Part shown: positions 28,376-43,831 of the stretch, piece after piece | How the letters are laid out: every line of letters starts with the position of its first letter | Numbering within the stretch: position 1 is the stretch's first letter | Source of the DNA: Acidocella sp. KAb 2-4 | GTDB taxonomy: Bacteria; Pseudomonadota; Alphaproteobacteria; Acetobacterales; Acetobacteraceae | DNA length: 64,000 nt | Reading direction: 5' to 3' | Assembly: GCF_020567705.1 (NCBI RefSeq) | Contig: NZ_JAJDJU010000006.1 | Span: forward strand, 62,001-126,000 | Translations under genes and position numbers: made by a program | The notes under the pieces: model-generated | Told to the model about the DNA's origin: nothing | Database searches by the model: none | The model's input: only the letters and a program-made list of their open reading frames with translations

Positions 28376-30070
28376 ATGCCAGGGAATTGGGACAAGGAAC
28401 TCGATGTGCTGGTGGTCGGTTCGGGCGCGGGCGGCATGCTCGCCGCCCTGGTCGCGGCGAGCCGCGGAGCCGGGACGTTGCTGATCGAGAAGGAGCCGCT
28501 CTGGGGCGGCACCTCGGCCACCTCGGGTGGCGGCATCTGGATTCCGGGCAGCGACCAGGCCAAGGCCGCCGGGTTCAACGACAACGAAGACGACGCCTTC
28601 ACCTATGTGCGCAAACTCTCCGCCCCCAACGTGCCGGACGAGACTATCCGCGCCTATGTCCATAACGCGGCGCTGATGCTGCGCTGGCTCACCGCCAATA
28701 CCGAAATCGATTATCAGGCCTTCCCCTACCCCGATTACCATGCCGAGAACCCCGGCGGCTCGCCCACCGGCTACCGCACGCACATGCCTCTGCCGCTGGA
28801 TGGCCGCCGCCTGGGCGATGATGTCCGCACGCTGCGCTTCGCCTCGCCGGCGGCCTCGCTGTTCGGCTATCTGAACTGGCATTTCGACGAAACCTATATG
28901 CTGCTGTTCCGCGCCCCGGGCTGGTGGCGGCATCTGGCCAAGAGCCTGGCGCGATACTGGCTGGACCTGCCCTTCCGCCTCACCTCGCGCAAGGACCGGC
29001 GGCTGACGCTGGGCAACGCGCTGGCCGGCGGGCTGCGCCTGGCGCTGAACAAGCGGGGCGTGCCGCTCTGGCTCGACAGCCCGATGCGCGAGCTGGTGGT
29101 GGAGGACGGCAAGGTGACCGGCGCCGTGGTGCATCACCAGGGGCGCGATCTGCGCATTCGCGCCCGCAAGGGGGTGGTGCTTGCGGCTGGCGGGTTCGAC
29201 AAGAACGAGGCGATGCGCAAGCTGCACGCGCCGCTCTACCCCAGCGCGGCGCGCTCGGGCGGCACCAGCGGCGATACCGGCGATGGCCTAACAGCGGGCG
29301 AGAAAGTCGGCGCGGATGTGATGAACCTGCATTCCGCCTGGGCCGCCCCGGTGTTTTACGTGCCCGGCGAGGATCGCGGCCGCCTCTGCACCATCGAGCG
29401 CGCGCTGCCCGGCTGCATCATGGTCGCGCAGGATGGCAAGCGCTATCTGAACGAAGCCGCCTCCTACCACATCGTCGGCCAGCAGATGGCGCGGCGCCAG
29501 GCCGAGCGCGGCGATGCCAGCCCGAGCTGGTTCGTGTTCGACCATCGCTACCGGCACTCCTACCCGGTTGGCCCGCTCTACCCGCTCATGCCGGACTGGC
29601 TGCACAACAAGGCGGTCCGCTCGATCTTGCGCAAGGGCCGGACGCTGGCCGAACTCGCCCAGGCCATGGGCGTGCCGCCCGCCACCCTGCGCGAGACGGT
29701 GGAACGCTTCAACGCCAATGCCGCGCAGGGCATGGACCCGGAATTCCACCGTGGCGAGGCCGCCTATGACAAGATGTATGGCGATGCGCGGGTGACGCCG
29801 AATCCCTGCCTGCGCCCCATCGACCAGGGGCCGTTTTACGCCATGCCGATCTATCCAGGCGATATCGGCACCAATGGCGGCCTGCGCACCGATGCGCTAG
29901 CGCGCGTCATCGACTCGCATGGCCAGCCGATCGCGGGTCTCTACGCCATCGGCAACACCGCCGCATCGGCGATGGGCGAGAGTTATCCGGGGGCGGGCGT
30001 CACCATCGGCCCCGCCCTCACCTTTGGCTATATCGCCGCCAACCACATGACCGGAGGCAACGCGGAATGA
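28376..30070 (+). CDS. kstD: 3-ketosteroid delta1-dehydrogenase (KstD-like)
   Basis: Flavoprotein that would introduce the 1,2 double bond in a 3-keto-4-ene steroid, the step that primes ring B opening. The 564-residue protein has the FAD fold VLVVGSGAGGMLAA (residues 11-24) and GGTSATSGGGIWIP. The aromatic loop FPYPDYHAENPGG (Tyr118/Tyr121) is present, as is the C-terminal ESYPGAGVTIGPALTFGY. Tyr537 and Gly541 keep the four-residue spacing of the catalytic Tyr487/Gly491 of Rhodococcus KstD1. The ATG at 28376 is where homology begins. It sits between two SDR genes. A related 4-ene-dehydrogenase or fumarate-reductase-like activity is less likely. Confidence 0.87.
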   Translation: MPGNWDKELDVLVVGSGAGGMLAALVAASRGAGTLLIEKEPLWGGTSATSGGGIWIPGSDQAKAAGFNDNEDDAFTYVRKLSAPNVPDETIRAYVHNAALMLRWLTANTEIDYQAFPYPDYHAENPGGSPTGYRTHMPLPLDGRRLGDDVRTLRFASPAASLFGYLNWHFDETYMLLFRAPGWWRHLAKSLARYWLDLPFRLTSRKDRRLTLGNALAGGLRLALNKRGVPLWLDSPMRELVVEDGKVTGAVVHHQGRDLRIRARKGVVLAAGGFDKNEAMRKLHAPLYPSAARSGGTSGDTGDGLTAGEKVGADVMNLHSAWAAPVFYVPGEDRGRLCTIERALPGCIMVAQDGKRYLNEAASYHIVGQQMARRQAERGDASPSWFVFDHRYRHSYPVGPLYPLMPDWLHNKAVRSILRKGRTLAELAQAMGVPPATLRETVERFNANAAQGMDPEFHRGEAAYDKMYGDARVTPNPCLRPIDQGPFYAMPIYPGDIGTNGGLRTDALARVIDSHGQPIAGLYAIGNTAASAMGESYPGAGVTIGPALTFGYIAANHMTGGNAE

Positions 30071-30879
30071 GCAAAAGGCTACAAGACCGCGTCGCCGTGG
30101 TCACCGGGGCGGCGCAGGGCATCGGCAAGGCCATCGTCACCCGGCTGGCGGCCGAGGGCGCGCGGGTCGTCGCGCTCGACCTCGCCGCCCCCGCCACCAG
30201 CGAGACCGGCGCCGCGCTTGGCCTGGCTTGCGATGTCGCTAATTCCGCCTCGGTCGCCGCCGCGCTCGCGCACGTGCGCGAGGCTCTGGGGCGGCTGGAT
30301 ATCGTGGTCAATAATGCGGGCATCGGCCGTGCCCCCGGCGACGGGTCCGAGGCGTTCTACCAGGCGATGGCGGCGCGCAACGCCGAACTCGCGGCCCAGG
30401 GCGCCTCGGAGATCCATGTCGACCAGCTCATCCACATGGAGGATGCGGGCTGGGCGGCGGTGATGGCCGTCAACATCAACGGCCCGTTCTACACGGCGCG
30501 CGAATTCACCCGCATTCTCGCACGGGATGGTAATCCCGGCACCATCGTCAACATCAGTTCCACCAGCGCGCAATCGGGCGAAGGCAGCCCGCATTATGTG
30601 ACCAGCAAGGCCGCCATCATCGGCCTCACCCGGCAATTGGCGCGTGAGCTGGCGCCGCGCCGCATCCGGGTGAATGCCGTGGCGCCAGGGCCGACCCAGA
30701 CCCCGGTGATGCAGGGCATTCCGGCGGAATGGATCAAGTCGATGGAGACATCGGTGCCGCTTGGCCGCATGGCGGAGCCGGGGGAGATCGCCGCCGCGGT
30801 GGCGTTTTTGGCCAGCGACGATGCGAGCTACGTGACCGGCTCCGTGCTCGTCACCAATGGCGGCAGCTATTTCTTCTAG
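30067..30879 (+). CDS. Short-chain dehydrogenase/reductase
   Basis: An SDR of 270 residues with TGAAQGIGKAIV, NNAGIGRAPG, ISSTSAQSG, the catalytic HYVTSKAA and GSVLVTNGGSYFF at the end. An insertion of about 25 residues after NNAG (YQAMAARNAELAAQG) is unusual for the size class. Its start overlaps the KstD stop (ATGA), so the two are translated together. That makes a steroid alcohol or ketone the likely substrate. It overlaps the convergent sulfotransferase gene by four bases at the 3' end. Confidence 0.86.
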   Translation: MSKRLQDRVAVVTGAAQGIGKAIVTRLAAEGARVVALDLAAPATSETGAALGLACDVANSASVAAALAHVREALGRLDIVVNNAGIGRAPGDGSEAFYQAMAARNAELAAQGASEIHVDQLIHMEDAGWAAVMAVNINGPFYTAREFTRILARDGNPGTIVNISSTSAQSGEGSPHYVTSKAAIIGLTRQLARELAPRRIRVNAVAPGPTQTPVMQGIPAEWIKSMETSVPLGRMAEPGEIAAAVAFLASDDASYVTGSVLVTNGGSYFF

Positions 30880-32138
30880 CCGGCGGCCAATTCCGGCGGG
30901 AGATGGGTGGCATAATGCCGCCAGCGCCCGCTGGAGCTTTGGTAGAGCGGCTGCCGCACCTGCGACCAGCTCGCCGTGCGCACCTCACGCTTCGTCTTGT
31001 GGAAATCGAGACAGGCAGCCTCCCACTCTAGCCCTAGAAACTCGATGAGCCGACGGCTTTCCGCCTCGGGATTCTGCAACAGGGCCTCGTAGGATAGCGT
31101 CATCTGCCGCAGGGGCAGCGCCGCGCGCCAGTGCGCGACCAGGCGCTCCAACTCGGCCATGCGGAAGGCACAATCGGCAAGATCTGTGTCGAAGCCGAGC
31201 GGCGCAGCGAAATGCTGGAAGAAGCAGGAGATGGCGACATCGCGCTTGTCGCGGACACAGAAAATCACCCGCGCCTTGGGAAACAGATGCGCAATCAGGC
31301 CGAGCTGGAAGATGTTATCCGGCATCTTGTCGATCATCCGCGCCGCCCCCCGCGCCTGCCGCGCGATCGGCGCCAGATAGGCCCGCGCCGCCTCCTTGAG
31401 GGCCTGCGGCGTCCAGCGCGGATTGGGCGACCAGCCGAGCTGAGCGGCAATGCGGCCGATGCCATCCTGCTCTCCGGCGCCAAACACCTTGGAGTGGCTG
31501 GCGGCGATCTGCTCGACCAGCGAGGAACCGGCGCGGGGCATGCCGACGATGAACACCGGGGCCTCCGTGGGGTCCGCCCCGGCGCCGAAGCCCCCGGCCG
31601 GAAAGGCGGCGGCAATGCGGCCAATGTCGCGGTGCAGCCGGGCGCGGTCGAACCCCCGCCCGGCCGCCGCCAGCGCAGCGCGCACTATGCCATTGGCCTC
31701 GCGGGCGGCGGCGAAGGCGGGGTCATACGCACCTTGCGCCTCCTGCTGGCGGGCCAGGGCGAATAGCAACTCCACCCGCTCGGGCGCGGGCAAATTCGGG
31801 GTGGCGAGCGCGGCCTGCAAGGCGGGGATATTCGCGGCCTGACGGCGTAGGGCGGCGAGGTGGCGCTGCGCCTCGCCAAAGCCGGGGGCCAGCGCCACCG
31901 CCCGCGTCAACGCCGCCTCCGCGCCCGCCAGATCGCCGGTAATCGCCAAAGACAGGCCGAGCTCCTTCCAGGGCAAAGGCGCATCGGGCCGCGCCTGGGT
32001 GGCGGCGCGGAACGCCGCCGCGGCTTCCGCCTCGCGCCCGGCTTGGCGCAGGGCTAGCCCCTGCTCATGGCGCGCCGCCGCCATATCCGCCGCCGGGATG
32101 GCGGTTTTGGCGTGCTGGCGGCGCTCGTGCCGGTTCAT
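30876..32138 (-). CDS. TPR-repeat sulfotransferase family protein
   Basis: A 420-residue protein. The N-terminal part (about 15-130) has tetratricopeptide-like helices (HEQGLALRQAGREAEAAAAF, ELGLSLAITGDLAGAEAALT). A sulfotransferase domain follows with the PAPS 5'-phosphosulfate loop VFIVGMPRAGSSLVEQIAASH and the later KARVIFCVRDKRDVAISCFF. It would move sulfate from PAPS to a hydroxyl or tyrosine. The ATG at 32138 overlaps the SDR stop (ATGA). Such TPR-sulfotransferases are common in alphaproteobacteria with unknown acceptors. Lying inside a steroid cluster, a sterol hydroxyl is a tempting acceptor but only inference. Confidence 0.83.
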   Translation of the reverse strand: MNRHERRQHAKTAIPAADMAAARHEQGLALRQAGREAEAAAAFRAATQARPDAPLPWKELGLSLAITGDLAGAEAALTRAVALAPGFGEAQRHLAALRRQAANIPALQAALATPNLPAPERVELLFALARQQEAQGAYDPAFAAAREANGIVRAALAAAGRGFDRARLHRDIGRIAAAFPAGGFGAGADPTEAPVFIVGMPRAGSSLVEQIAASHSKVFGAGEQDGIGRIAAQLGWSPNPRWTPQALKEAARAYLAPIARQARGAARMIDKMPDNIFQLGLIAHLFPKARVIFCVRDKRDVAISCFFQHFAAPLGFDTDLADCAFRMAELERLVAHWRAALPLRQMTLSYEALLQNPEAESRRLIEFLGLEWEAACLDFHKTKREVRTASWSQVRQPLYQSSSGRWRHYATHLPPELAAG

Positions 32139-32884
32139 CCCTCGCCTTTGACGATGTCGAGGAAGGGCGGACGCTCGCCGCCGCCATGCACGGCCAGTTC
32201 GGCTCCGGTGATATAAGACGCGCCGGACGAACACAGGAACAGCACGGCGTCCGCCACCTCCTCAGCCCTGCCCAGCCGCCCGGCGGCGATGTTTTTGCCG
32301 ATGGCCGCCTGTTTCTCGGCATCGCCATAGGTGGCATCGGTGGCTTCCGTTTCGATATAGCCGAGAATGAGCGTGTTGACGCGGATTTCCGGCCCCCATT
32401 CATGTGCCAAGCTGCGCGACAGGCCGAGCAATCCGGCCTTGGCGGCGGCATATACCGAGGTGCCGGGCGAGGGCCGCACGGCGGAGACCGAGGCGATGTT
32501 GATGATCGCCCCGCGCCGCGCCTTGAGCTGCGCATAGGCGGCCTGGGCGACGTAAAGCGGCGCCAGCAGGTTGAGCGCCACCACGCGCTCGGAAAAGCGC
32601 GCCGAGGCCGTCGCCGCCTCAGCCGGGGGCGACCCGCCGGCATTGTTCACAACGAAATCAAGCCCGCCTTGCTCCACCACGATCTGCGCCACCATCGCCT
32701 TCACCGCCTCGGGGTCTCGCACGTCGCAGGCAATGAAGGCAAACTCCGCCGGCAGATCGCCCGGCATACGCCCGCACACCACCACCTTCGCCCCGGCCGC
32801 CGCCAGCTTCTGCGCGATCGCACGGCCAATGCCCCGCGTCCCGCCGGTGACCAGGGCCACCTTGCCTACCAACTCCACCGCCAA
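32135..32884 (-). CDS. Short-chain dehydrogenase/reductase with TTG start
   Basis: A 249-residue SDR: TGGTRGIGRAIA, NNAGGSPP, ASVSAVRPSPG, catalytic VYAAAKAG, tail LAVHGGGERPPF. No in-frame ATG lies near the conserved start. The TTG at 32884 has GGAGGG seven bases upstream, and an out-of-frame ATG lies between, so TTG is the best choice (GTG at 32878 is the alternative). It is translationally coupled to the TPR-sulfotransferase. Keto/hydroxyl conversion of a pathway intermediate is likely. Confidence 0.84.
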   Translation of the reverse strand: MAVELVGKVALVTGGTRGIGRAIAQKLAAAGAKVVVCGRMPGDLPAEFAFIACDVRDPEAVKAMVAQIVVEQGGLDFVVNNAGGSPPAEAATASARFSERVVALNLLAPLYVAQAAYAQLKARRGAIINIASVSAVRPSPGTSVYAAAKAGLLGLSRSLAHEWGPEIRVNTLILGYIETEATDATYGDAEKQAAIGKNIAAGRLGRAEEVADAVLFLCSSGASYITGAELAVHGGGERPPFLDIVKGEG

Positions 32885-32911
32885 AACATTTCCCTCCAGC
32901 TATATTCGCAT

Positions 32912-33092
32912 CGCATTTTATTGCATCAATAGGTTAATGTCGATGATTTGCGTATTTTTGCAAGCGCAACAGCGCTGGCCTGAAGCATGAATCAACACCC
33001 TTTACATTGCGTTATCCGAGTGGCGTTCGCACCATTATTATCGCGACCAGCGATCCAATACTTGATATTTTGCGTATTTGCTACCATATATA
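32912..33092. promoter_or_regulatory. AT-rich divergent region with repeated elements and a candidate hsaA promoter
   Basis: The gap 32,885-33,161 has no gene. It contains CGCATTTTATTGCA at 32912-32925, TTTGCGTATTTTTG at 32947-32960 and TTTTGCGTATTTG at 33068-33080. The last overlaps TTGATA (33062-33067) and precedes TATATA (33087-33092) with a long 19-base spacer. The GCGTATTT element is shared with 17,235. Confidence 0.35.
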
Positions 33093-33161
33093 CTCTACGA
33101 ACAACACAAGCGAGGCCACAGCTGTAGCGCCGCGCTGCGAATGTCATGGGGATGTGACGCG

Positions 33162-34367
33162 ATGACCAATATCCAGAAAGTCGTGATCGACACGGCACCC
33201 GCGCCCGAAGAGCTGATCGCCCGCGCCCGGGCGATGATCCCGGCGCTGAAAGCGCGCGCCAAACGCACCACCGCCGAGCGCAAAATCCCCGATGAAACCA
33301 TCGCCGAAATGCAGGCGGCCGGGTTCTTCCGCGTGCTGCAGCCCAAGCGCTGGGGCGGCTATGAGATGCACCCCAACGTGTTCTTCGAGATCCAAAAACT
33401 GCTGGCCGAGGGCTGCATGTCCACCGGCTGGGTGTATGGCGTCGTCGGCGGCCACCCTTATGAGTTGGCCCTATTCCACGACCAGGCGCAGCGCGAGGTC
33501 TGGGCCGAGGACGACTCCATCCTGGTCTCTTCCTCCTACCAACCCGTCGGCAAGGTCGAGCGCGCCGAGGGTGGCTTCTACCTCTCCGGCCGCTGGGGGT
33601 TCTCCTCCGGCAGCGAGCATTGCCAATGGGTGCTGCTCGGCGCCATGGTGCCGCCGCTGAACGCGGACGAGCCGCCGGATATGCGCACCTTCCTGGTGCC
33701 GCGCGCCGATTATCAGATCGACCAGACCTGGGACACGTTCGGCCTGCAAGGCACGGGCAGTCACGACATCGTCGTCGAACGCGCCTTCGTGCCCGAATAC
33801 CGCACCCATAAGGCCATCGACGGCTTCCTCTGCCAAAACCCCGGCCAGGCCGAAAACAGCGCGCCGCTGTTCCGCATGCCCTGGGCCCAGCTCTTCCTCC
33901 GCCTCGTCTCCACCGCCGCCCTCGGCGGCACCCGCGCCGCCATCAACGCCGCACTCGAGATCGCGCAATCGCGCATCTCCACCAACACCGGCAAGGTGTC
34001 AAAATCCGATCCGATCCTGCTCAACGCCATCGCCACCGCCTATGCCCAGCTCGACGAAATGGAAGCCGTGCTGCGGCGCAATTTCGACGACCTCGTCGCC
34101 ATCGTCGAAGCCGGCGAGGAAATCCCCATGGCCAAGCGCCAGCTCTACCGGTTCCAATCCTCCTCCGTCGCCCGCCGCTGCGCCGATCTCGTCGATAACC
34201 TGCTGCCCCTGCTCGGCGGCCGCGCCATCTACATGCACAGCCCCATCATCCAGCCCTGGCTCGACCTCAACGCCGCGCGCGCCCATGTCGCCAACGACCC
34301 CAACAACATGGGGCCAGACCTCGCAAACGGACTCATGGGAATCCCACTCGCATTCCCCTTCCTGTAA
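33162..34367 (+). CDS. hsaA: HsaA-like flavin-dependent monooxygenase, oxygenase component
   Basis: Class D flavin monooxygenase with the acyl-CoA dehydrogenase fold. HsaA hydroxylates the aromatised ring A of the 9,10-secosteroid (3-HSA) to a catechol. The 401-residue protein has the typical KIPDETIAEMQAAGFFRVLQP, the GCMSTGWVYGVVGGHPY segment and GRWGFSSGSEHCQW. The end contains the YMHSPIIQPWLDLNAARAH signature. Length is close to known HsaA. The ATG at 33162 follows GGGGA. The partner reductase HsaB is not in the window. The extradiol dioxygenase gene follows after 156 bases. Other class D hydroxylases of aromatic acids are the alternative. Confidence 0.85.
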   Translation: MTNIQKVVIDTAPAPEELIARARAMIPALKARAKRTTAERKIPDETIAEMQAAGFFRVLQPKRWGGYEMHPNVFFEIQKLLAEGCMSTGWVYGVVGGHPYELALFHDQAQREVWAEDDSILVSSSYQPVGKVERAEGGFYLSGRWGFSSGSEHCQWVLLGAMVPPLNADEPPDMRTFLVPRADYQIDQTWDTFGLQGTGSHDIVVERAFVPEYRTHKAIDGFLCQNPGQAENSAPLFRMPWAQLFLRLVSTAALGGTRAAINAALEIAQSRISTNTGKVSKSDPILLNAIATAYAQLDEMEAVLRRNFDDLVAIVEAGEEIPMAKRQLYRFQSSSVARRCADLVDNLLPLLGGRAIYMHSPIIQPWLDLNAARAHVANDPNNMGPDLANGLMGIPLAFPFL

Positions 34368-34438
34368 GGCGACCCACGTGAACGCAAAGCCGGAAGCTGC
34401 CGTTTTGAATTTCAATATTCGTTTTATTTAAGCTTATT

Positions 34439-34523: not shown

Positions 34524-35435
34524 ATGGCGGTCGCATCTTTGGGCTACATCATCGCCAAAACGCGAGATCTGTCATCTTGGGCAGCCTTCGCCACCAATGT
34601 GCTTGGCGTGATGCCGGCCCCCTCTGGCCGCGACGATGTGTTGCTGTTCCGCATCGATGATCGGCCGTTCCGGATTTGGGTCGAGCAAGGCGATGCCGAT
34701 GCCTTCGTGATGCCGGGCTGGGAATTTCAGACCGAGGCGGAAATGGATGCCGCGATCGCGCGGCTGCGCGACGCCGGGCATCCGGTTGAGATGTTGGATG
34801 TGATGACCACGCGGGCACGCCATGTTGCCAAGCTCGCGCGCGCTATGGACCCGCAGGGCCATCCGTTCGAGATCTTTTATGGCCGCTTCCTGGACTACGT
34901 CCCGTTTGTATCGCCTGCCGGCGTAAGCGGTTTCGTGACCGGATTGAACGGCGAAATGGGGCTTGGGCATGTCGTGCTAACCGCCCCGAGTTTCGAGGAA
35001 ACCTACAGGTTTTACAAAGAGCTTCTCGGATTCGGCGACACCGATTTCGGGCGCTTCTACCTCGCGGGCGGCGGGCCGGAGGATAAGGGGGTGAGCTTCG
35101 CCTTCCTGCATGCGCAAAATGCCCGCCACCACAGCCTGGCGCTGGGGGAATTGCCGGAGAGCCCGAATGGCGCCGTGCATATCATGCTTGAAGTCAATAA
35201 TATCGACGATGTCGGGCGTGCCTTTGACCGCGCGAAGAAACATGGCGCGCATATATCGGCCTCGATGGGCAAGCATGTGAACGACAAGATGATCTCTTTC
35301 TATGTCCGCTCGCCCAGTGGTTTCGATATTGAATATGGCTGCCAGGGCCTGCAGCTTGACCCTGCGACCTGGGTGCCGACGACCAGCATCGCGGTGAGCG
35401 ACTGGGGCCATGTATGGAGCCATGCGCAGGAATGA
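34524..35435 (+). CDS. hsaC: HsaC-like extradiol dioxygenase
   Basis: Type I extradiol ring-cleavage dioxygenase (Fe(II), meta-cleavage) of 303 residues. It has an N-terminal vicinal-oxygen-chelate domain and a catalytic C-terminal domain. The iron ligands are visible as His149 (MGLGHVVL), His203 (ARHHSLALG) and Glu270 (GFDIEYG), with Tyr260 and His196 as the usual second-shell residues. Following an HsaA-like gene, it should open the catechol of the secosteroid (DHSA). BphC-type enzymes for biaryl catechols share the motifs, so assignment rests on context. No HsaD hydrolase gene was found nearby. Confidence 0.87.
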   Translation: MAVASLGYIIAKTRDLSSWAAFATNVLGVMPAPSGRDDVLLFRIDDRPFRIWVEQGDADAFVMPGWEFQTEAEMDAAIARLRDAGHPVEMLDVMTTRARHVAKLARAMDPQGHPFEIFYGRFLDYVPFVSPAGVSGFVTGLNGEMGLGHVVLTAPSFEETYRFYKELLGFGDTDFGRFYLAGGGPEDKGVSFAFLHAQNARHHSLALGELPESPNGAVHIMLEVNNIDDVGRAFDRAKKHGAHISASMGKHVNDKMISFYVRSPSGFDIEYGCQGLQLDPATWVPTTSIAVSDWGHVWSHAQE

Positions 35436-35443
35436 TCCGGACC

Positions 35444-35565: not shown

Positions 35566-36723
35566 ATGCCCCTGACCTATACGACCTCGCAACAGACATT
35601 CCGCCAGGAGGCGCGAGCTTGGCTGGCCGCGCATATGCCCCCTGCCCCGCTGCCCCATTTCGATGCGACGCGCGACGGCTTTGAGGCGCATCGCGCCTGG
35701 GAGCGCACATTGCATGCAGGTGGCTGGAGCGTGGTGAGCTGGCCGAAAGAGTATGGCGGGCGCGGGCTCGACTTGATCGAGTGGCTGATCTTCGAGGAGG
35801 AATATTACCGCGCCGGGGCCCCAGGGCGGGTGAACCAAAACGGAATCTGCCTGCTGGCGCCAACGATGATGGAATACGGTACGGCGGAACAGAAGGCCCG
35901 CTTTCTGCCGCCAATGGCCTCGGGTGAGGAAATCTGGGCGCAGGCATGGTCGGAGCCGCAGGCCGGCAGCGATCTCGCGCATATCCGCGCCACCGTGACG
36001 CAGGAAGGCGACGAGCTCGTGCTGAACGGGCACAAGATCTGGTCGTCGCGCGCGGTGTTCGCCGATTGGGCCTTCGGACTGTTCCGCACGCCAGGCAGCG
36101 AGCGGCATCGGGGCATGTCTCTGGTGTTCTTCCCGCTCAACGCGCCGGGCGTAACGGTGAACGCAATCCGCAAGATGGACGGGCATGTCGGCTTCGCGGA
36201 ACTCTTTCTTGAAAATGTGCGCGTGCCTGTCTTCAACCGTTTGGGCGAGGATGGACAGGGCTGGCATATCTGCATGGCCACGGCGGGGTTTGAGCGCGGC
36301 TTGCTGCTGCGCTCGCCGGCCCGCTACCAGCAGGCGGCGGCCAGGCTCGTGGCGTTGTATCATGCGCAGGGCGCGGCGGCTGACCCGGTGTTGGGCCAGG
36401 AGGTGGCGCGCGCCTGGATGAATGCCGAGGCCTATATGCTCGCCATCTACGCCATGTGCTCGCGCCTGCTGGCGGGCGGCAAGATCGGCCCCGAAGCCAG
36501 CACCAACAAGATTTTTTGGTCGGAGCTGGACATCCATCTGCATCGCACGGCGCTCGCGCTGCTCGGCCCGCGCGCTGAACTGCTGCCGGACGCGCCCGAG
36601 GCCGCGCATGACCATGATTGGCTGGATGGCTATGTGTTCTCGCTGGCCGGGCCGATTTATGCCGGGTCCAATGAGATCCAGCGCAACATCATCGCCGAGC
36701 GCATGCTTGGCCTGCCCCGCTGA
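35566..36723 (+). CDS. Acyl-CoA dehydrogenase (pair 3, long subunit)
   Basis: A 385-residue dehydrogenase with AQAWSEPQAGSDLAHIRAT, NGHKIWSSRAVFADWAF and the end PIYAGSNEIQRNIIAERMLGLPR. The usual catalytic Glu position is Ala (YAGS). I chose the ATG at 35566 where homology begins; the ribosome site is weak. It starts the nine-gene operon that runs to 43,831, followed after 10 bases by its short partner. By neighbours it resembles the FadE30-33 group that acts on the last steroid rings as CoA thioesters (inference). Confidence 0.85.
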   Translation: MPLTYTTSQQTFRQEARAWLAAHMPPAPLPHFDATRDGFEAHRAWERTLHAGGWSVVSWPKEYGGRGLDLIEWLIFEEEYYRAGAPGRVNQNGICLLAPTMMEYGTAEQKARFLPPMASGEEIWAQAWSEPQAGSDLAHIRATVTQEGDELVLNGHKIWSSRAVFADWAFGLFRTPGSERHRGMSLVFFPLNAPGVTVNAIRKMDGHVGFAELFLENVRVPVFNRLGEDGQGWHICMATAGFERGLLLRSPARYQQAAARLVALYHAQGAAADPVLGQEVARAWMNAEAYMLAIYAMCSRLLAGGKIGPEASTNKIFWSELDIHLHRTALALLGPRAELLPDAPEAAHDHDWLDGYVFSLAGPIYAGSNEIQRNIIAERMLGLPR

Positions 36724-36733
36724 AGGTGCCGCG

Positions 36734-37768
36734 ATGGATTTCCGCTTTACCGAAGACCAGTTGATGATGGCGGAGACGGCGCGCAAGCTGCTCGCCGATA
36801 CCGCCACCTCCGCCCAGCTGCGCACCATGCTCGCCAACGGCATGGCCCGGGATGACGCGCGCTGGACGAAGATCGTCGAGACCGGACTGACGCTGACCAT
36901 GCTGCCCGAGGATGCCGGCGGGCTGGGCCTTACCGAAGCTGATTTCGTACTGATTGCGGAAGCGGCTGGTTACGCCGCGCTGCCCGAACCGCTGGTGGAG
37001 AGCGCGGGCATCGCCGCGCCACTGCTCGCCGCCATTGCCCCCGCGCATGAGGTGCTGGGCGACCCCGCCGCCACGATCGCCATTGGCCATGCCATCAACC
37101 CCTATGTGGCGGATGCCGACACCGCCGCCGCGCTGCTGCTGCACCATGATGGCGCCACGTATCTGCGCCGCCCGGATGAAGTGCGGCTGATCCGGGAGGA
37201 GAGTCTCGATCCGTTCCGCCGGCTGTTCAAGGTGGAATGGGAGCCAAGCGGAGAGCCGCTCTCGGCCGCCCCGGATTTGTGGAGCGATGCGTTGGACCGG
37301 GGCGCGCTGTTTATGGCCGCGCAATGCGCCGGGCTGGCGCAACGGGCCATCGACATCGCGGTGGATTACGCGAAGACCCGCGAGCAATTCGGCAAGCCGA
37401 TCGGCGCTTATCAGGCGGTGAAACATCTGCTTGCCACCGCGCAGGTGCAGGTGGAATTCGCCAAACCCGTGGTGCATGCGGCGGCCATCGGGCTGGCGCA
37501 GCGCGACGTGTTCTCCCGCGCGCGCATCAGCCACGCCAAGATCGTGGCCGCTGAAGCCGCGGATCTCGCGACGCGCACGGCGCTGCAGGTGCATGGGGCG
37601 ATGGGGTATTCGTGGGAGGTTGACGTGCATTTCCTGCTCAAGCGGGCGCTGGCGCTGAACACCGCCTGGGGTGGCCCTGGCTTTCACCGTGAGCGTGTGC
37701 TGGCGCGGCTGCGCGCCGCCCCCGCCGGGCCCGAGTACGGCTTTGCCCACGCCGGCATGGAGGCCTGA
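36734..37768 (+). CDS. Acyl-CoA dehydrogenase (pair 3, short subunit)
   Basis: A 344-residue dehydrogenase that starts MDFRFTEDQLMMAETARKLL. It has YAKTREQFGKPIGAYQAVKHLLATA and ends with LQVHGAMGYSWEVDVHFLLKRALAL. The middle domain is reduced, as in the short halves of the other two pairs here. Only 10 bases separate it from the long subunit and one base from the next gene. It probably forms a heteromer with its neighbour, like FadE31-FadE32/33 of actinobacteria. Confidence 0.84.
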   Translation: MDFRFTEDQLMMAETARKLLADTATSAQLRTMLANGMARDDARWTKIVETGLTLTMLPEDAGGLGLTEADFVLIAEAAGYAALPEPLVESAGIAAPLLAAIAPAHEVLGDPAATIAIGHAINPYVADADTAAALLLHHDGATYLRRPDEVRLIREESLDPFRRLFKVEWEPSGEPLSAAPDLWSDALDRGALFMAAQCAGLAQRAIDIAVDYAKTREQFGKPIGAYQAVKHLLATAQVQVEFAKPVVHAAAIGLAQRDVFSRARISHAKIVAAEAADLATRTALQVHGAMGYSWEVDVHFLLKRALALNTAWGGPGFHRERVLARLRAAPAGPEYGFAHAGMEA

Positions 37769-37769
37769 T

Positions 37770-38423
37770 TTGCCCTGCTATTCCCTGCAAGGCGTAGTTC
37801 CGGTCGTGCATCCTGGCAGCTTCGTGCATCCGCTCGCGTCGCTGATCGGCGATGTCATCGTCGGGCCGGGCTGCTTTATCGCGCCGGGCGCCTCGCTGCG
37901 CGGCGATTTCGGCCGGATCATCGTGGAGGGCGATAGTTCGATCCAGGATAATTGCGTGCTGCATTCGTCGCCGGGCGCCGATTGCATCGTTAAACGCGGG
38001 GCCACCGTGGGGCATGGCGCGGTGCTGCATGGCTGTGTTGTGGAAGAACATGCGCTGATCGGGATCTCCGCCGTGGTGCTGGACCATGCCGTAATCGGCG
38101 CGGAATCTCTGGTGGCGGCGTTGACGCTCGTGAAAAACGATCTGATCGTGCCGCCGCGCAGCCTCGTCGCCGGCAACCCGGCACGGATCGTCAAGCAATT
38201 CACCGCGGCGCAGATCACTTGGCGCAATGACGGCGATAGCGAATATCAGCGCCTGGCGCGTGAGATGCTGGCCGAATGCGTAGAAGTTGCGCCGCTGGCC
38301 GAGATGGCGCCGGACCGTCCGCGCATGCGCTCCACCGCGATTCCGGTGCGGCTGCGCGGCCCCGCAGCGCACGAGCGCGAGCGCCGCGTGGCGGCCAGAA
38401 TGGAGGCGCCGGGCCATGAGTGA
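37770..38423 (+). CDS. PaaY-like hexapeptide-repeat protein (gamma-carbonic anhydrase family), TTG start
   Basis: A left-handed beta-helix protein of 217 residues: CYSLQGVVPVVHPGSFVHP, then GDVIVGPGCFIAPGASLRGDFG, QDNCVLHSSPG and GHGAVLHGCVVEEHALIG. The three metal-binding His positions of gamma-carbonic-anhydrase-type folds are suggested by VLHS, GHGAVLHG and the neighbouring repeats. PaaY is a thioesterase that rescues CoA in phenylacetate catabolism, and an analogous housekeeping role is plausible. There is no ATG at the family start. TTG at 37770 has GGAGG six bases upstream inside the previous gene. It overlaps the next gene by eight bases. Confidence 0.82.
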   Translation: MPCYSLQGVVPVVHPGSFVHPLASLIGDVIVGPGCFIAPGASLRGDFGRIIVEGDSSIQDNCVLHSSPGADCIVKRGATVGHGAVLHGCVVEEHALIGISAVVLDHAVIGAESLVAALTLVKNDLIVPPRSLVAGNPARIVKQFTAAQITWRNDGDSEYQRLAREMLAECVEVAPLAEMAPDRPRMRSTAIPVRLRGPAAHERERRVAARMEAPGHE

Positions 38424-38868
38424 CGCCGCCATCGCTATTCCGAATTTGCTTTATAGCTACGCGGATTTCATCGACGCGGGAGATTTTGCCGGGGCCGCGC
38501 GGCTGTTCCGGCATGGCGCCGTGGTGACTGGCAACCAGCGCATCGCAGGTGAAGCTGAAATCGCCGCGCTCTGGCGCGGTTGGGTGAAGCTCTACCCTGA
38601 CGGCACGCCGCGGACACGGCATCTGATCAGCAACCCTATCATCACATTGGCACCGGAAGGTGACGCGGCCAGTTGCCGCTCGCAATGGACTGTTCTGCAA
38701 GCGGCTGAAGGGTTTCCGTTGCAGGTGATCGCCACCGGCCGGTATGAGGACGAGTTTCGGCGCATCAACGGCGAATGGCAATTTACCGAGCGGCGCTATG
38801 CCGGGGTGGATCTGACCGGCGACATGAGCGCTCATATCAAGAAGCATTTAGAAAACCGGAGGGCATGA
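38416..38868 (+). CDS. NTF2/SnoaL-like protein
   Basis: A 150-residue NTF2-fold protein (LLYSYADFIDAGDFAGAARLFRHG, RTRHLISNPIITL, WQFTERRYAGVDLTGDMS). The fold covers ketosteroid isomerases, dehydratases and non-catalytic proteins. A conserved family pattern with Tyr and Asp at the cone opening is seen, but the catalytic set cannot be assigned by eye. It overlaps the PaaY-like gene and is one base before an SDR, so it is a full operon member. A small isomerase or hydratase step in ring degradation is one idea. Confidence 0.72.
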   Translation: MSDAAIAIPNLLYSYADFIDAGDFAGAARLFRHGAVVTGNQRIAGEAEIAALWRGWVKLYPDGTPRTRHLISNPIITLAPEGDAASCRSQWTVLQAAEGFPLQVIATGRYEDEFRRINGEWQFTERRYAGVDLTGDMSAHIKKHLENRRA

Positions 38869-38869
38869 C

Positions 38870-39775
38870 ATGGGAGTTTGCGAAGGCCGCGTGGTGATCG
38901 TGACCGGCGCTGGCAATGGCCTGGGCCGCGCCTATGCGCTGGGTCTGGCCGCCGAAGGCGCGAAGGTGGTGGTAAATGATCTCGGCGTTGGCACTCATGG
39001 CGAGGCAGGGCTGACCAAAGGCGCCGCAGAGAAGGTGGTGGATGAGATCCGCGCCATGGGCGGTGAGGCCGTCGCCAATACCGACGACGTGGCGGATTGG
39101 GAAGCGGGCGGACGCATTGTGAAAACCGCTCTGGACACCTTTGGCGATCTGCATGCCGTGGTCAACAATGCTGGCTTCGTGCGCGACCGCATGTTCGTCT
39201 CCTGCACGCCGGAGGAATGGGATGCGGTGATCCGCGTGCATCTGCGCGGGCATTTCTGCACCGCGCGCCATGCCGTCGATTATTGGCGCGCGCAGCAGAA
39301 AGCGGGCAAGACCGTGGATGCGCGCATCATCAACACCTCCTCCGGCGCGGGGCTGCAAGGCTCCATCGGGCAAAGCGCGTATTCAGCGGCGAAGGGGGGC
39401 ATCGCCTCGCTCACGCTGGTGCAGGCGGCGGAGTTGGCGCGCTATGGCATCACCGCCAACGCGCTGGCGCCGAATGCGCGCACGCGGATGACGCAGGAAG
39501 CCTTTGGCGAGCGCATGAGCCAGGCTGAGAACAGCTTCGATGTTTACGCGCCGGAGAATACCGCGCCGCTGGTGACCTGGCTGTGTAGCACGCAATCGGC
39601 GTTTGTCACCGGTCAGGTGTTCGAGTTGCAGGGCGGGAAGATCTTCCTCTCCGAAGGCTGGACCGACAGCCCGGCCGAAGACAAAGGCGCGCGCTGGCAT
39701 GCGGGCGAGTTGACGCCGGTGGTGCAGCGATTGATCGCCGCGCGCCACCCCGCCAAACCGGTTTATGGAGCGTAA
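38870..39775 (+). CDS. Short-chain dehydrogenase, MFE-2/17-beta-HSD type 4-like
   Basis: A 301-residue SDR with the peroxisomal-MFE-like opening VVIVTGAGNGLGRAYALGLAAEGAKVVVNDLG, read here in parts. NNAGFVRDRM, the catalytic SSGAGLQGSIGQSAYSAAKGG and a longer C-terminal tail follow. Proteins of this type oxidise 3-hydroxyacyl-CoA or 17-beta-hydroxysteroids. Rv3548c of the mycobacterial HIP gene set is of similar type and length. GGAGG precedes the ATG at 38870 by seven bases. It probably oxidises a hydroxyacyl-CoA from the MaoC hydratase in this operon. Confidence 0.84.
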   Translation: MGVCEGRVVIVTGAGNGLGRAYALGLAAEGAKVVVNDLGVGTHGEAGLTKGAAEKVVDEIRAMGGEAVANTDDVADWEAGGRIVKTALDTFGDLHAVVNNAGFVRDRMFVSCTPEEWDAVIRVHLRGHFCTARHAVDYWRAQQKAGKTVDARIINTSSGAGLQGSIGQSAYSAAKGGIASLTLVQAAELARYGITANALAPNARTRMTQEAFGERMSQAENSFDVYAPENTAPLVTWLCSTQSAFVTGQVFELQGGKIFLSEGWTDSPAEDKGARWHAGELTPVVQRLIAARHPAKPVYGA

Positions 39776-39779
39776 GGCG

Positions 39780-40556
39780 ATGAACAGCCCCGCCTATCCC
39801 GAGCCGCGCGGTTTGCTGAAGGGCAAGACCGTCGTCATCACCGCCGCCGCCGGCACCGGCATCGGGTTTTCCGCCGCCCTGCGCGCCGCTGAGGAAGGCG
39901 CTACCGTGCTGCTCTCCGACTTCCACGAGCGCCGGTTGAACGAATCCGCTGACCACATCGCCGAGAAGCTCGGCATCCGCCCGGAAATTTGCGTGTGCGA
40001 TGTAACGAACGAGGCGCAGGTGCAAGCTCTGCGTGACACGGCGCTGGCCAAGCTTGGCCGTGTCGATGTGCTGATCAACAATGCCGGGCTGGGCGGGGAA
40101 GTTCCCGTCGTCGACATGACGGATGAACAATGGAGCCGGGTGCTGGATGTCACTCTCACCTCGTTATTCCGCATGACCCGCGCTTTTCTGCCCGCGATGT
40201 ATGCCGCGAAATCCGGTGTGATGGTTAACAACGCTTCGGTGCTGGGTTGGCGCGCGCAGAAGGGCCAAGCGCATTACGCCGCCGCCAAGGCCGGGGTGAT
40301 GGCGTTCACCCGCTGCGCCGCGATGGAAGCCGCTGAGCATGGCGTGCGCATCAATGCCGTCAGCCCCAGCCTCGCCATGCATCCGTTTCTTGCCAAGGTG
40401 ACGACCGACGAGACGCTGGCCGAGTTGGTGAAGCGCGAGGCGTTTGGCCGCCCGGCCGAAGTGTGGGAAGTGGCGAATGTGATGATGTTCCTCGCTTCCG
40501 ATCTGTCTTCGTATCTGACGGGCGAGGTGATTTCCTGTTCGAGCCAGAGGGCCTGA
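39780..40556 (+). CDS. ipdF: IpdF-like short-chain dehydrogenase
   Basis: A 258-residue SDR with the distinctive cofactor loop TAAAGTGIG instead of TGxxxGxG. It also has SDFHERRLNE, NNAGLGGEVPV, NNASVLGWRAQKGQ, HYAAAKAGVMAFTRCAAMEA and the ending YLTGEVISCSSQ. These stretches closely match my recollection of mycobacterial IpdF (Rv3559c). IpdF oxidises the 5-hydroxyl of the HIP-CoA series during degradation of steroid rings C and D. The start at 39780 is four bases after the previous stop, and the next gene shares its A. This is one of the strongest links to steroid catabolism here. Confidence 0.88.
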   Translation: MNSPAYPEPRGLLKGKTVVITAAAGTGIGFSAALRAAEEGATVLLSDFHERRLNESADHIAEKLGIRPEICVCDVTNEAQVQALRDTALAKLGRVDVLINNAGLGGEVPVVDMTDEQWSRVLDVTLTSLFRMTRAFLPAMYAAKSGVMVNNASVLGWRAQKGQAHYAAAKAGVMAFTRCAAMEAAEHGVRINAVSPSLAMHPFLAKVTTDETLAELVKREAFGRPAEVWEVANVMMFLASDLSSYLTGEVISCSSQRA

Positions 40557-41020
40557 TGTCGACGATTTTCGAAACACCGCGGGCGCTGCTGGGCGCAGAA
40601 GGCACGTTGCTTGGCCCGACGGCGTGGCTGCGCATCGATCAGGCGCGCATTGATGCTTTTGCCGCCTGCACGGGCGATGATCAGTGGATTCACGTGGACC
40701 CGGTGCGCGCTAAAAGCGGGCCGTTTGGCACCACCATCGCGCATGGCTATCTCACGCTCAGCCTTGTTAACATGTTTCTGCCTCAGATGCTGGAGGTTCG
40801 GAATTTTTCCTCCGGCGTGAATGTGGGGCTGGACCGGGTGCGTTTTCTTGCGCCGGTGCCATGCGGGGCGCGTATCCGCGGCGCAGGAGAGATCATCAAA
40901 GTCGAAGAGGTGAAGGGCGGCGCCATCCAATCCACCGTGCGCGTCACCGTTGAGATTGAAGGCGCCAATAAGCCCGCCTGCATCGCCGACACCATCAGCC
41001 GTTATTTTTCGGAGTCCTGA
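40556..41020 (+). CDS. MaoC-family enoyl-CoA hydratase
   Basis: A single-domain MaoC hydratase of 154 residues: AACTGDDQWIHVDPVRA, then SGPFGTTIAHGYLTLSL supply the catalytic Asp and His. The rest (NVGLDRVRFLAPVPCGARIRG, IKVEE) closely parallels the MaoC gene at 14,388, so the two are paralogues assigned to different modules. It starts with the TGATG overlap to the IpdF-like gene and ends three bases before the thiolase. It probably hydrates the enoyl-CoA formed by the dehydrogenase pair of this operon. Confidence 0.88.
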   Translation: MSTIFETPRALLGAEGTLLGPTAWLRIDQARIDAFAACTGDDQWIHVDPVRAKSGPFGTTIAHGYLTLSLVNMFLPQMLEVRNFSSGVNVGLDRVRFLAPVPCGARIRGAGEIIKVEEVKGGAIQSTVRVTVEIEGANKPACIADTISRYFSES

Positions 41021-41023
41021 CCC

Positions 41024-42226
<1,203 letters not shown>

Positions 42227-42235
42227 GGAACAGCC

Positions 42236-43831
42236 ATGCAACTCGCCATCGCGCCAGATCCATCGCCGCTGCGGGCGCTGGATGAGCGCCTCTCCGGCCC
42301 GATCACGATACCCGCCGCCGTGGAGGCCGCCGCCGCGGTGTTCCACGGCGCGCCCGCGATTGTGGAGCATGGGGAAAGCTGGAGCTATGCCGAGCTATGG
42401 GCGCGCGCGCGCCAGACCGCCGCGGCGTTTTTGGCGGCGGGGCTGCGCAAAGGCGAGGCCGTGGGTATTTGGGCGCCGAATTGCCGCGAATGGATTCTCG
42501 CCACGCTGGGCGCGCAAATCTGCGGCGCGCGCATCGTGCCGCTGAACACGCGCTATAAGGGGCGCGAGGCGGGGGATATTCTGCGCCGGGCGCATGCGGC
42601 GATGCTGTGCATGAGCGGGAACTTCCTGGGCACTGACTACGCGGCGCTGCTGCGTGATGAAGCTCTGCCCAACCTGCGCCGGCGCATCGTGTTTGGCGGC
42701 GGCGGTTCCGAGGGGTGGGAGACGTTCCTCGCCGCCGGTGCGGACGTGCCGGCCGCGGCGGTGGACAGCGCGCTGGCCTCGGTGGCGCCGGATGATATTT
42801 GCGATATTCTGTTCACCTCCGGCACCACCGGAGCGCCGAAGGGCGCGCTCACCGCGCATGGGCAGGTCATCCAGCTCTTTTACAACTGGGCCAAACGGAT
42901 GACGCTCGCGGCGGGCGATCAGTTTCTCATCGTCAATCCGTTTTTCCATACCTTTGGCTACAAGGCGGGCTGGCTGCCCGCGCTGCTGCGTGGCGCCACC
43001 GTGGTGCCGATGCCGGTTTATGATCCGGCCGGCGCGGCGGCGCTGATCGAGGCGCAGAAAATCTCGTTCCTGCCCGGCCCGCCGACGATCTATCAGACAT
43101 TACTCGCCGAGCAGACCAAGACAAAACGCGACTTCTCCTCGCTACGCGTCGCGGTGACGGGCGCCGCGGTGGTGCCGCCGGTGTTGATCGAGCGCATGTA
43201 TAAGGAGCTGGGTATCCGCCTCGTATTTAGCGGTTATGGCATGACCGAGTGCGGCGTGATCGCGATGACGCAGGCGGGGGATTCGGTGGAGACCGTGTGT
43301 GGCACTTGTGGGTGCGCGGTCACGGGCATCGAGATCAAATGCGTTGACGATGAAGGCCGCACGCTGGGGGTTGGCGAAGCTGGCGAGATTCTGGTGCGGG
43401 GTGTGGGTGTAATGCAGGGCTATCTGGATGATCCCGAAGCCACGGCGGCGGCGATCGATGCGCAGGGCTGGCTGCATACCGGCGATGTCGGCACGCTCGA
43501 TGAGCGCGGTTATCTGCGCATCACCGACCGGAAGAAGGATATGTACATCACCGGCGGGTTCAACTGCTACCCGGCGGAGATTGAGAAAATCCTGTGCGAA
43601 AACCCAAAGGTCGAAATGGCGGCGGTGGTGGGGATGCCCGATGAGCGGCTGGGCGAAGTCGGCAAGGCGTTTCTGGTGCTGCGGCCGGGGCAGAGCGCGA
43701 CCGAGGCCGAAATCATTGCGTGGGCGCGCGACAACATGGCGAATTTCAAGGTGCCGCGCAGTGTGGAATTCCGCGTTGAATTGCCGAGAAACGCCGCTGG
43801 CAAGGTGGTGAGGATGGATCTGCGGCAATAA
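42236..43831 (+). CDS. fadD3: Acyl-CoA ligase, FadD3-like
   Basis: An adenylate-forming CoA ligase of 531 residues: LFTSGTTGAPKGALTAHGQ, NPFFHTFGYKAGWLPALL, SGYGMTECGV, HTGDVGTLDERGYLRITDRKKDMYITGGFN (read in parts) and PRNAAGKVVR with the catalytic Lys. The FFHTFGYKAG stretch and the neighbours fit FadD3, which activates HIP, the propionate left after rings A and B are removed. It closes the nine-gene operon. A second, distinct ligase at 12,064 appears to serve the side chain, so the window has one ligase per module. Confidence 0.87.
   Translation: MQLAIAPDPSPLRALDERLSGPITIPAAVEAAAAVFHGAPAIVEHGESWSYAELWARARQTAAAFLAAGLRKGEAVGIWAPNCREWILATLGAQICGARIVPLNTRYKGREAGDILRRAHAAMLCMSGNFLGTDYAALLRDEALPNLRRRIVFGGGGSEGWETFLAAGADVPAAAVDSALASVAPDDICDILFTSGTTGAPKGALTAHGQVIQLFYNWAKRMTLAAGDQFLIVNPFFHTFGYKAGWLPALLRGATVVPMPVYDPAGAAALIEAQKISFLPGPPTIYQTLLAEQTKTKRDFSSLRVAVTGAAVVPPVLIERMYKELGIRLVFSGYGMTECGVIAMTQAGDSVETVCGTCGCAVTGIEIKCVDDEGRTLGVGEAGEILVRGVGVMQGYLDDPEATAAAIDAQGWLHTGDVGTLDERGYLRITDRKKDMYITGGFNCYPAEIEKILCENPKVEMAAVVGMPDERLGEVGKAFLVLRPGQSATEAEIIAWARDNMANFKVPRSVEFRVELPRNAAGKVVRMDLRQ

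What the first reader, a model, noticed from the sequence alone, without database searches (positions are those of the whole stretch)
28376..43831. Steroid ring-degradation gene set (KstD, HsaA, HsaC, IpdF, FadA6, FadD3 types) in a probable alphaproteobacterium
The KstD-like protein keeps the Tyr/Gly catalytic spacing, and the extradiol enzyme has its three iron ligands. The IpdF-like SDR has the rare TAAAGTGIG loop. Together with the thiolase/ligase pair they outline the 9,10-seco pathway down to rings C and D. KshAB, HsaB, HsaD and IpdABC are not in the window, so the pathway is either split over loci or uses substitutes.
Basis: partly seen in the sequence, partly recalled or inferred. Interest (0 to 1): 0.7.

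Follow-up and report, generated by a model that had tools for sequence, protein, structure and literature searches.

The report
Steroid-eating gene cluster in Acidocella
The genes are a real steroid-breakdown set, most of the pieces that seemed to be missing lie on the same stretch of DNA just outside the window, and the owner is a relative of Acidocella aquatica, from a genus of acid-loving bacteria for which our searches turned up no published report of this ability.

Summary
One label changes: the thiolase at 41024-42226 is the HIP-thiolase type (Comamonas ORF33); the FadA6/ScdF orthologue lies upstream. The pathway is mostly not split over distant loci: the window is the middle of contig C56, and KshA, an HsaB-like reductase, TesD/HsaD, IpdA, IpdB, IpdC, EchA20, a second KstD, a second HsaC and two further HsaA genes lie 5-38 kb upstream of the window on that contig. 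Of 31 named Comamonas testosteroni steroid genes, 27 have a match on C56; TesE, TesF, TesG and KshB do not (TesF homologues with TesG-like neighbours are on other contigs; no close KshB was found). The genome is inferred to be an Acidocella: A. aquatica has a compact block of the same genes (63-91% identity). Candidate 12-hydroxyl enzymes and a 5-beta-type Old Yellow Enzyme point to bile-acid-type steroids; this is inference. The trait is rare in the genus (IpdA in 3 of 38 genomes). Known pathway, unusual host; no growth data.

The parts
713..2314 (-). GMC oxidoreductase; reciprocal best hit (RBH) of a gene (ct_035) in the C. testosteroni steroid hot spot
   Evidence: Pfam PF00732; 45.7% RBH
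4200..11069 (-). Putative side-chain / beta-oxidation block: CoA-transferase III, acyl-CoA dehydrogenase pair, FadB-like multifunctional protein, thiolase
   Evidence: Pfam; RBHs of hot-spot genes ct_030, ct_036 (a fused pair there), ct_033, ct_032; none of the 48 gene calls on the A. aquatica contig has one of these as best hit
12064..13659 (+). Acyl-CoA synthetase of the PRK07798 subfamily
   Evidence: NCBIfam NF005863 587 bits, cut-off 543; RBH ct_038
13738..14391 (-). SnoaL/NTF2-like protein, counterpart of Comamonas ORF7 / Hsh1 (12-beta-hydroxysteroid dehydratase)
   Evidence: PF13577; 62.6% RBH; name by gene order from PMC8399759 Table 1
14876..17133 (-). Acyl-CoA dehydrogenase pair: 14876-16054 is the ScdC2 counterpart; 16051-17133 is its partner (ScdC1 position)
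   Evidence: Pfam; ScdC2 52.9% RBH; the ScdC1 link is 35% and not reciprocal
17559..19679 (+). Old Yellow Enzyme + pyridine-nucleotide oxidoreductase, candidate 5-beta-Delta4-3-ketosteroid dehydrogenase
   Evidence: PF00724 + PF07992; 44.2% RBH of hot-spot gene ct_048; family link read in passages of PMC8044976
19755..26352 (-). Transporter cassette: MMPL-type RND protein, YCF48/BNR protein, DUF1329, DUF1302
   Evidence: Pfam; the four genes are RBHs of four genes of the C. testosteroni hot spot; resembles the AmeABCD exporter (passages)
27588..28361 (+). SDR, SteB counterpart (12-keto-steroid reduction)
   Evidence: 47.8% RBH; name by gene order from PMC8399759 Table 1
28376..30070 (+). KstD, 3-ketosteroid Delta1-dehydrogenase
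   Evidence: PDB 7p18 480 bits against 157 for the best chain not named a 3-ketosteroid dehydrogenase; catalytic residues kept; TesH 40%, but the RBH of TesH is the upstream copy at 42%; NCBIfam below cut-off
30067..30879 (+). SDR, SteA counterpart (12-alpha-hydroxysteroid dehydrogenase)
   Evidence: 46.3% RBH
33162..34367 (+). HsaA/TesA2-type 3-HSA hydroxylase oxygenase; near-identical second copy upstream at C56:55550-56755
   Evidence: PDB 2rfq 280 bits against 155 for 2jbr, a p-hydroxyphenylacetate hydroxylase; NF045629 371.5 bits, cut-off 450; repeat 99.78% over 1338 bp
34524..35435 (+). HsaC/TesB-type extradiol dioxygenase of the alphaproteobacterial group
   Evidence: PDB 2zi8 204 bits against BphC 1han 182; tree; Fe ligands
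35566..37768 (+). Acyl-CoA dehydrogenase pair, Comamonas ORF21/ORF22 (FadE31/FadE32 type)
   Evidence: 57.9% and 40.1% RBH
38416..38868 (+). Short protein kept next to the ScdE counterpart in A. aquatica and B. terrae; function not assigned (SnoaL-like by eye)
38870..39775 (+). SDR, ScdE counterpart
   Evidence: 55% RBH; NF005861 457 bits, cut-off 373
39780..40556 (+). SDR, ScdG/IpdF counterpart with TAAAGTGIG
   Evidence: 63% RBH; NF005880 438 bits, cut-off 336
40556..41020 (+). MaoC-type hydratase, ScdD counterpart
   Evidence: PF01575; 47% RBH
41024..42226 (+). Thiolase, ORF33 / HIP-thiolase type (not FadA6)
   Evidence: 59.6% RBH
42236..43831 (+). FadD3/ScdA-type HIP-CoA ligase
   Evidence: NF005801 688 bits, cut-off 657; ScdA 50% RBH

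Best explanation
The window is the middle of a cluster of about 80 kb (C56:23.8-105.8 kb) for aerobic steroid breakdown by the 9,10-seco pathway in an Acidocella species. Proposed order: an amidase and a CasG/SclA-like ligase prepare conjugated or acidic side chains (inferred); an Old Yellow Enzyme and a TesI-like enzyme make the 3-keto-Delta4 ring (inferred); KstD adds the Delta1 bond; SteA/SteB-like SDRs invert a 12-hydroxyl (inferred); KshA hydroxylates C9 and ring B opens; HsaA with a flavin reductase, HsaC and TesD open and cut ring A; FadD3/ScdA activates the remaining C/D-ring acid (HIP), and ScdC/ScdD/ScdE/ORF33, IpdF, IpdC, EchA20, IpdAB, FadE31/32 and FadA6/ScdF finish it. TesE/F/G-type steps are probably supplied by genes on other contigs shared with aromatic meta-cleavage. 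Shown by sequence: which families the genes belong to and that they lie together. Inferred: every activity, the substrate and growth.
For: 27 of 31 named C. testosteroni steroid genes have a tblastn match (E<=1e-10) on C56; for 12 the better match is in the window and for 15 it is upstream. Of these 27, 26 are reciprocal best hits between my gene calls (compared with C56, and also part of C45, not with the whole genome). Best PDB chains fit steroid enzymes for KstD, HsaC, HsaA, KshA and IpdA (that 2zi8 is M. tuberculosis HsaC and 6co6 is IpdA is recalled, the PDB names them BphC and CoA-transferase). KshA_C domain on C56:48153-49232, 194 bits, cut-off 23. HsaC groups with A. aquatica and Brevundimonas, apart from the genome's own two extradiol enzymes on contig C45. 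A. aquatica contig 8 carries the same genes in one block. The genome is given as 100% complete with 0.21% contamination.
Against: KstD, HsaA and HsaC score below their NCBIfam cut-offs. HsaC beats BphC only narrowly in the PDB (204 against 182 bits) and by NCBIfam is a near tie (268 HsaC, 272 BphC). The TesD counterpart matches BphD (153 bits) better than HsaD (114 bits) in the PDB. The HsaB/TesA1 link is weak (30%, 55-62 bits). No close KshB (best 35% over 200 residues). The hot-spot gene ct_063, which I take to be Sal2 from gene order, has no match on C56, so the side-chain route is unclear. Comamonas names were transferred by gene order from strain CNB-2 (Table 1 of PMC8399759) to strain NFYY023. 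No expression or growth data.
Confidence: 0.92

Rival explanations
1. The set serves another polycyclic substrate (diterpenoid, triterpenoid/hopanoid or biphenyl-like) with steroid-like enzymes.
For: HsaC and TesD scores are close to or below BphC/BphD. The DUF1302/DUF1329/RND cassette is known from monoterpene export (passages), and a DUF1329-like gene also lies in the aromatic cluster on C45. An acid-habitat bacterium might more often meet plant terpenoids (opinion).
Against: IpdA, IpdB, IpdC, EchA20, IpdF and ScdN counterparts for rings C/D are present and match Comamonas genes reciprocally; KstD and KshA best hits are steroid enzymes by wide margins. The two C45 extradiol enzymes form a separate group.
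Confidence: 0.06
2. The cluster is for steroids in general (androgens, plant or fungal sterol products) rather than bile acids.
For: SDR and Old Yellow Enzyme specificities are not predictable at 44-48% identity; PMC8044976 reports homologues of its enzyme that lacked the activity (passages). A. aquatica lacks the SteA-like gene on the contig held. A second ACAD pair, FadB-like and thiolase set may suggest longer side chains.
Against: SteB-, Hsh1- and Sor1-like genes are kept in both species, SteA only here; CasG is the best steroid-named model for the ligase C56:43605-45272 at 377 bits, though far below its cut-off of 750 and level with a general ligase model; an amidase counterpart is present.
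Confidence: 0.35
3. The two HsaA/HsaC modules (C56:52.4-54.5 kb, TesB type; window 33.2-35.4 kb, alphaproteobacterial type) are redundant results of cluster mixing, not a functional division of labour.
For: A. aquatica has only the window type, and genus member G018 only the TesB type apart from a C45-like copy (whole-genome search at E<=1e-40; types); the genome here has both.
Against: Both HsaC genes and all three HsaA genes are open reading frames and the H149 and E270 ligand positions are kept in both HsaC proteins.
Confidence: 0.4

Closest known systems
Comamonas testosteroni steroid hot spot (tes/scd/ste genes)
   Same: 27 of 31 named genes have matches on C56; SteA, SteB, ORF7, ORF6, TesB, ScdL1, ScdL2, ScdN, ScdK, ScdY, ORF21, ORF22, ScdF, KshA, ScdA, TesH, TesI, TesD, TesA2 and the transporter cassette have reciprocal counterparts.
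   Different: Genes reordered; KshB and TesE/F/G not on the contig; two HsaC and three HsaA genes; the putative Sal2 gene has no match on C56.
Acidocella aquatica NBRC 112502, contig NZ_BSOS01000008.1
   Same: 46 of 48 gene calls on the contig (6.5-58.5 kb) have their best hit on C56 at 63-91% identity.
   Different: One steroid HsaC (window type) and one close HsaA. On this contig, which ends inside the cluster, there is no counterpart of the SteA-like SDR, the TPR-sulfotransferase, the second KstD, the TesI-like gene, the TesB-type module or the CoA-transferase/FadB block.
Sphingobium sp. Chol11 / Caenibius tardaugens bile-salt genes (PMC8399759, PMC12882949; one section of each and passages read)
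   Same: Alphaproteobacterial 9,10-seco set, for Chol11 reported without KshB and without most known side-chain genes.
   Different: [quoted passage not shown] here one contig carries nearly all. No direct sequence comparison was made.
Actinobacterial cholesterol/cholate pathway (hsa, ipd, fadD3)
   Same: Same chemistry (established knowledge); best PDB chains for HsaC, HsaA, KshA and IpdA are actinobacterial (organisms recalled).
   Different: 38-41% identity for HsaC in the loci kept; in the one Rhodococcus locus examined, few other C56 genes match well (L051).

Membership tests
Aerobic 9,10-seco steroid pathway | 3-ketosteroid Delta1-dehydrogenase (KstD) with its catalytic residues | tested here: met
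   below the NCBIfam cut-off
Aerobic 9,10-seco steroid pathway | 3-ketosteroid 9-alpha-hydroxylase oxygenase KshA | tested here: met
   C56:48153-49232: PF19298 194 bits, PDB 4qdc 172 against 74 bits, Comamonas KshA 51.5% RBH
Aerobic 9,10-seco steroid pathway | KshB reductase | tested here: not met
   Comamonas ORF17 has no close match in the genome (best 35% over 200 residues); a small ferredoxin-like gene at C56:38728-39069 (by eye) is a possible stand-in; PMC8399759 Table 1 lists KshB as absent in Chol11 too
Aerobic 9,10-seco steroid pathway | HsaA oxygenase and HsaC extradiol dioxygenase | tested here: met
   both below NCBIfam cut-offs
Aerobic 9,10-seco steroid pathway | HsaD/TesD hydrolase | tested here: inconclusive
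   C56:32587-33420 is the RBH of TesD at 41.5%, but BphD scores higher than HsaD in the PDB (153 against 114 bits)
Aerobic 9,10-seco steroid pathway | HsaB / TesA1 flavin reductase | tested here: inconclusive
   C56:39259-39753, RBH of TesA1 at 30%; RutF model 198 bits, cut-off 255
Aerobic 9,10-seco steroid pathway | HsaE/F/G (TesE/F/G) | tested here: inconclusive
   not on C56; TesF homologues at C71 (64%) and C23 (59%; the one TGA counted is the stop codon of the 344-aa ORF called there), each with a TesG-like neighbour and, on C23, a hydratase-like gene by eye; TesE and TesG were not searched as queries over the genome
Rings C/D (HIP) degradation | IpdA, IpdB, IpdC, EchA20, IpdF, FadD3, FadE31/32, FadA6 counterparts | tested here: met
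Bile-acid (12-hydroxy) degradation | SteA, SteB, Hsh1, Sor1 set | tested here: inconclusive
   all four have RBH counterparts at 46-63%, spread over C56 rather than in one sub-cluster; activity not tested
Bile-acid side-chain degradation (Sal1/Sal2 aldolases) | steroid aldolases | tested here: inconclusive
   hot-spot gene ct_063, taken as Sal2 by gene order, has no match on C56; the rest of the genome was not searched
Growth on steroids | mineralisation of a steroid as carbon source | not testable with these tools
   needs culture

The most novel reading that the evidence does not exclude
An acidophilic Acidocella mineralises 5-beta, 12-hydroxylated steroids (bile-acid type) at low pH, using two evolutionarily distinct A-ring cleavage modules (one shared with other alphaproteobacteria, one next to the Comamonas TesB branch) and without a KshB reductase, as a rare accessory trait of the genus.
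Probability: 0.4. Interest if true: 0.6.

Novelty: new member of a known kind. Interest (0 to 1): 0.42.

Why it matters
It extends a well-studied pathway to an acidophilic genus for which the searches made here found no report of steroid degradation (listings, in a library of openly licensed papers only; the main texts of the two surveys PMC5790920 and PMC4810484 have no occurrence of Acetobacter*, Acidocella or Rhodospirill*, though both report unclassified Alphaproteobacteria and the first a peat-soil alphaproteobacterial bin, and their supplements were not seen). It names a type strain, A. aquatica NBRC 112502, in which to test it, and a genome with two steroid HsaC types in one cluster, useful for asking why steroid degraders keep several ring-cleavage enzymes.

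Tried and rejected
Considered and rejected: a biphenyl or other aromatic pathway for the window genes (the C45 extradiol enzymes lie beside a ring-hydroxylating dioxygenase set that reads by eye as hca/mhp-like, and group apart); contamination (C56 also carries queC/D/E-like genes on the left and a nitrate-reductase-like set on the right, both by eye, and a methylenetetrahydrofolate reductase, Pfam; genome contamination 0.21%); collapse or artefact for the hsaA repeat (the copies differ at 3 of 1338 positions and have unrelated flanks; long reads would still be needed).

Led nowhere: literature searches for Acidocella, Acetobacteraceae or acidophil* with steroid terms listed no paper whose listing reports steroid degradation by such bacteria (1, 8, 2, 6 and 16 papers, of the last 15 listed); one search lists two on a thermophilic actinobacterium. 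Of these papers only PMC8357290 was opened, for passages; it lists an Acidocella bin and a Steroidobacter-type taxon. One search (survey terms) found 0 papers. (DUF1302/DUF1329) led to PMC6394551. One search printed nothing (an import trial).

Papers: PMC8399759 section 6 read whole and passages elsewhere; PMC12882949 section 17 read whole and passages; PMC12175502, PMC8044976, PMC6394551, PMC5790920, PMC4810484 and PMC8357290 passages only. The Feller 2021 AEM paper (10.1128/AEM.00987-21) is not held and was not read. KstD residue numbers and the identity of PDB entries 2zi8 and 6co6 are recalled.
Full report
Where the window lies. The window is C56:62001-126000 of a 3.1 Mb, 71-contig genome, given as 100% complete with 0.21% contamination. 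Contig C56 is 136,701 bp. Among the 80 loci kept (of 191 confirmed relatives) from genome contigs, the best match of the window HsaC is Acidocella aquatica (85%), then Brevundimonas terrae (63%), a Rhodospirillales bin (55%) and Rhizorhabdus histidinilytica (49%); beta- and gammaproteobacterial loci such as Comamonas are at 41-45% and Nocardia/Rhodococcus loci at 38-41%. A same-genus genome, G002, carries the A. aquatica locus: same contig number and place as in the A. aquatica genome G038, and the same ORF score. The genus is therefore inferred to be Acidocella.

The observation. Each named gene is an intact ORF. Pfam and NCBIfam give the expected families. FadD3 (688 bits, cut-off 657), the SDR model PRK07831 for the IpdF-like protein (438, cut-off 336) and PRK07791 for the ScdE-like protein (457, cut-off 373) pass their cut-offs; KstD (522 of 789), HsaA (371.5 of 450), HsaC (268 of 450; BphC model 272 of 366) and the thiolase (537 of 615) do not. 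PDB searches favour steroid enzymes: KstD 480 bits against 157 for the best chain not named a 3-ketosteroid dehydrogenase, HsaA 280 against 155 for p-hydroxyphenylacetate hydroxylase, with two chains named only hydroxylase in between, HsaC 204 against 182 (2zi8 bears the name BphC in the PDB, that it is M. tuberculosis HsaC is recalled). KstD catalytic positions and HsaC iron ligands are kept.

The missing genes. PDB: KshA 172 against 74 bits; IpdA 250 against 88 (that 6co6 is IpdA is recalled). The TesD counterpart gives BphD 153 and HsaD 114, which is against the reading.

Comparison with Comamonas. With the C. testosteroni NFYY023 hot spot, named by gene order from Table 1 of PMC8399759 (strain CNB-2), 27 of 31 named genes match C56 at E<=1e-10; for 12 the better match is in the window and for 15 upstream; TesE, TesF, TesG and KshB have none. 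Of the 27, 26 are reciprocal best hits between gene calls of the two regions; ScdC1 is not. These are reciprocal within the regions held, not whole genomes. TesB, TesA2 and TesH pair with the upstream copies (50%, 48%, 42%) rather than with the window copies (42%, 41%, 40%).

Two ring-cleavage modules. In a tree of 36 rows picked by hand from the loci held, the window HsaC groups with A. aquatica (100/97) and B. terrae (99/99), inside an alphaproteobacterial group (91/95, with a long Rhizorhabdus branch), while the upstream HsaC groups with genus member G018 (100/100) beside the Comamonas/Alteromonadales TesB branch (96/93) (rooted at the midpoint, some long branches flagged). At E<=1e-40 the A. 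aquatica genome (G002) has one HsaC homologue, of the window type, and G018 has two, one of the upstream type and one of the C45 type. The genome's own two C45 extradiol enzymes group apart.

Substrate. Counterparts of SteA (window 30067-30879), SteB (27588-28361), Hsh1/ORF7 (13738-14391) and Sor1/ORF6 are present. PMC8399759 describes these as acting on the 12-hydroxyl during bile-acid degradation (passages). An Old Yellow Enzyme (17559-19679) pairs with a hot-spot gene of the family to which 5-beta-Delta4-ketosteroid dehydrogenase belongs (that paper also reports homologues without the activity). CasG is the best steroid-named model for the ligase at 377 bits, but its cut-off is 750 and a general ligase model scores the same. 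Bile-acid-type substrates are the favoured but unproven reading.

Gaps. TesF homologues lie on C71 (64%) and C23 (59%), each beside a TesG-like gene by eye. No close KshB was found in the genome. The side-chain route is not settled: a hot-spot gene taken as Sal2 has no match on C56, as reported for Sphingomonadaceae in PMC8399759.

Distribution. With IpdA as probe: 3 of 38 same-genus genomes (E<=1e-30), 2 of 299 sampled family genomes (E<=1e-50; the sample cannot have held G002 or G018, which would have matched), 10 of 386 sampled class genomes (E<=1e-60); own genome counted in each. With the window HsaC, 5 of 38 same-genus genomes at E<=1e-40, some only with C45-type copies. The trait is sporadic; horizontal transfer is plausible but was not tested beyond the HsaC tree.

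Judgement. A confirmed, nearly complete steroid cluster of a known kind in an unusual host. The novelty is the host and the mixture of ring-cleavage modules, not the chemistry.

Noticed in passing
window 33058-34395 and C56:55446-56783 (upstream of the window): hsaA with about 104 bp upstream and 28 bp downstream is duplicated as a direct repeat (1338 bp, 3 mismatches) 39.6 kb apart; in A. aquatica the single close hsaA sits between the left neighbour of one copy and the right neighbour of the other.
   Followed up: partly
window 30876-32138 (-): TPR + Sulfotransfer_3 protein inside the steroid block, with no counterpart on the A. aquatica contig.
   Followed up: no
window 44017-63716: Apparent metal-resistance region: two-component systems, AcrB-type efflux set, heavy-metal P-type ATPase, CsoR-like regulator (by eye) and multicopper oxidase; a nitrate-reductase-like set follows at C56:127550-134158 (by eye).
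   Followed up: no
G000:C45:119740-148705 (L100-L101): Aromatic cluster that reads by eye as hca/mhp-like, with two extradiol dioxygenases, an HsaA-like oxygenase (34%) and a DUF1329-like gene.
   Followed up: partly
C56:4276-6889 and 11221-14784 (L081): P450-like gene, a ferredoxin/oxidoreductase-like gene and a 1187-aa AMP-binding-like protein, all by eye, left of the steroid cluster.
   Followed up: no
window 2337-3140 (-): Fatty-acid-hydroxylase (PF04116) protein at the edge of the putative side-chain block.
   Followed up: no
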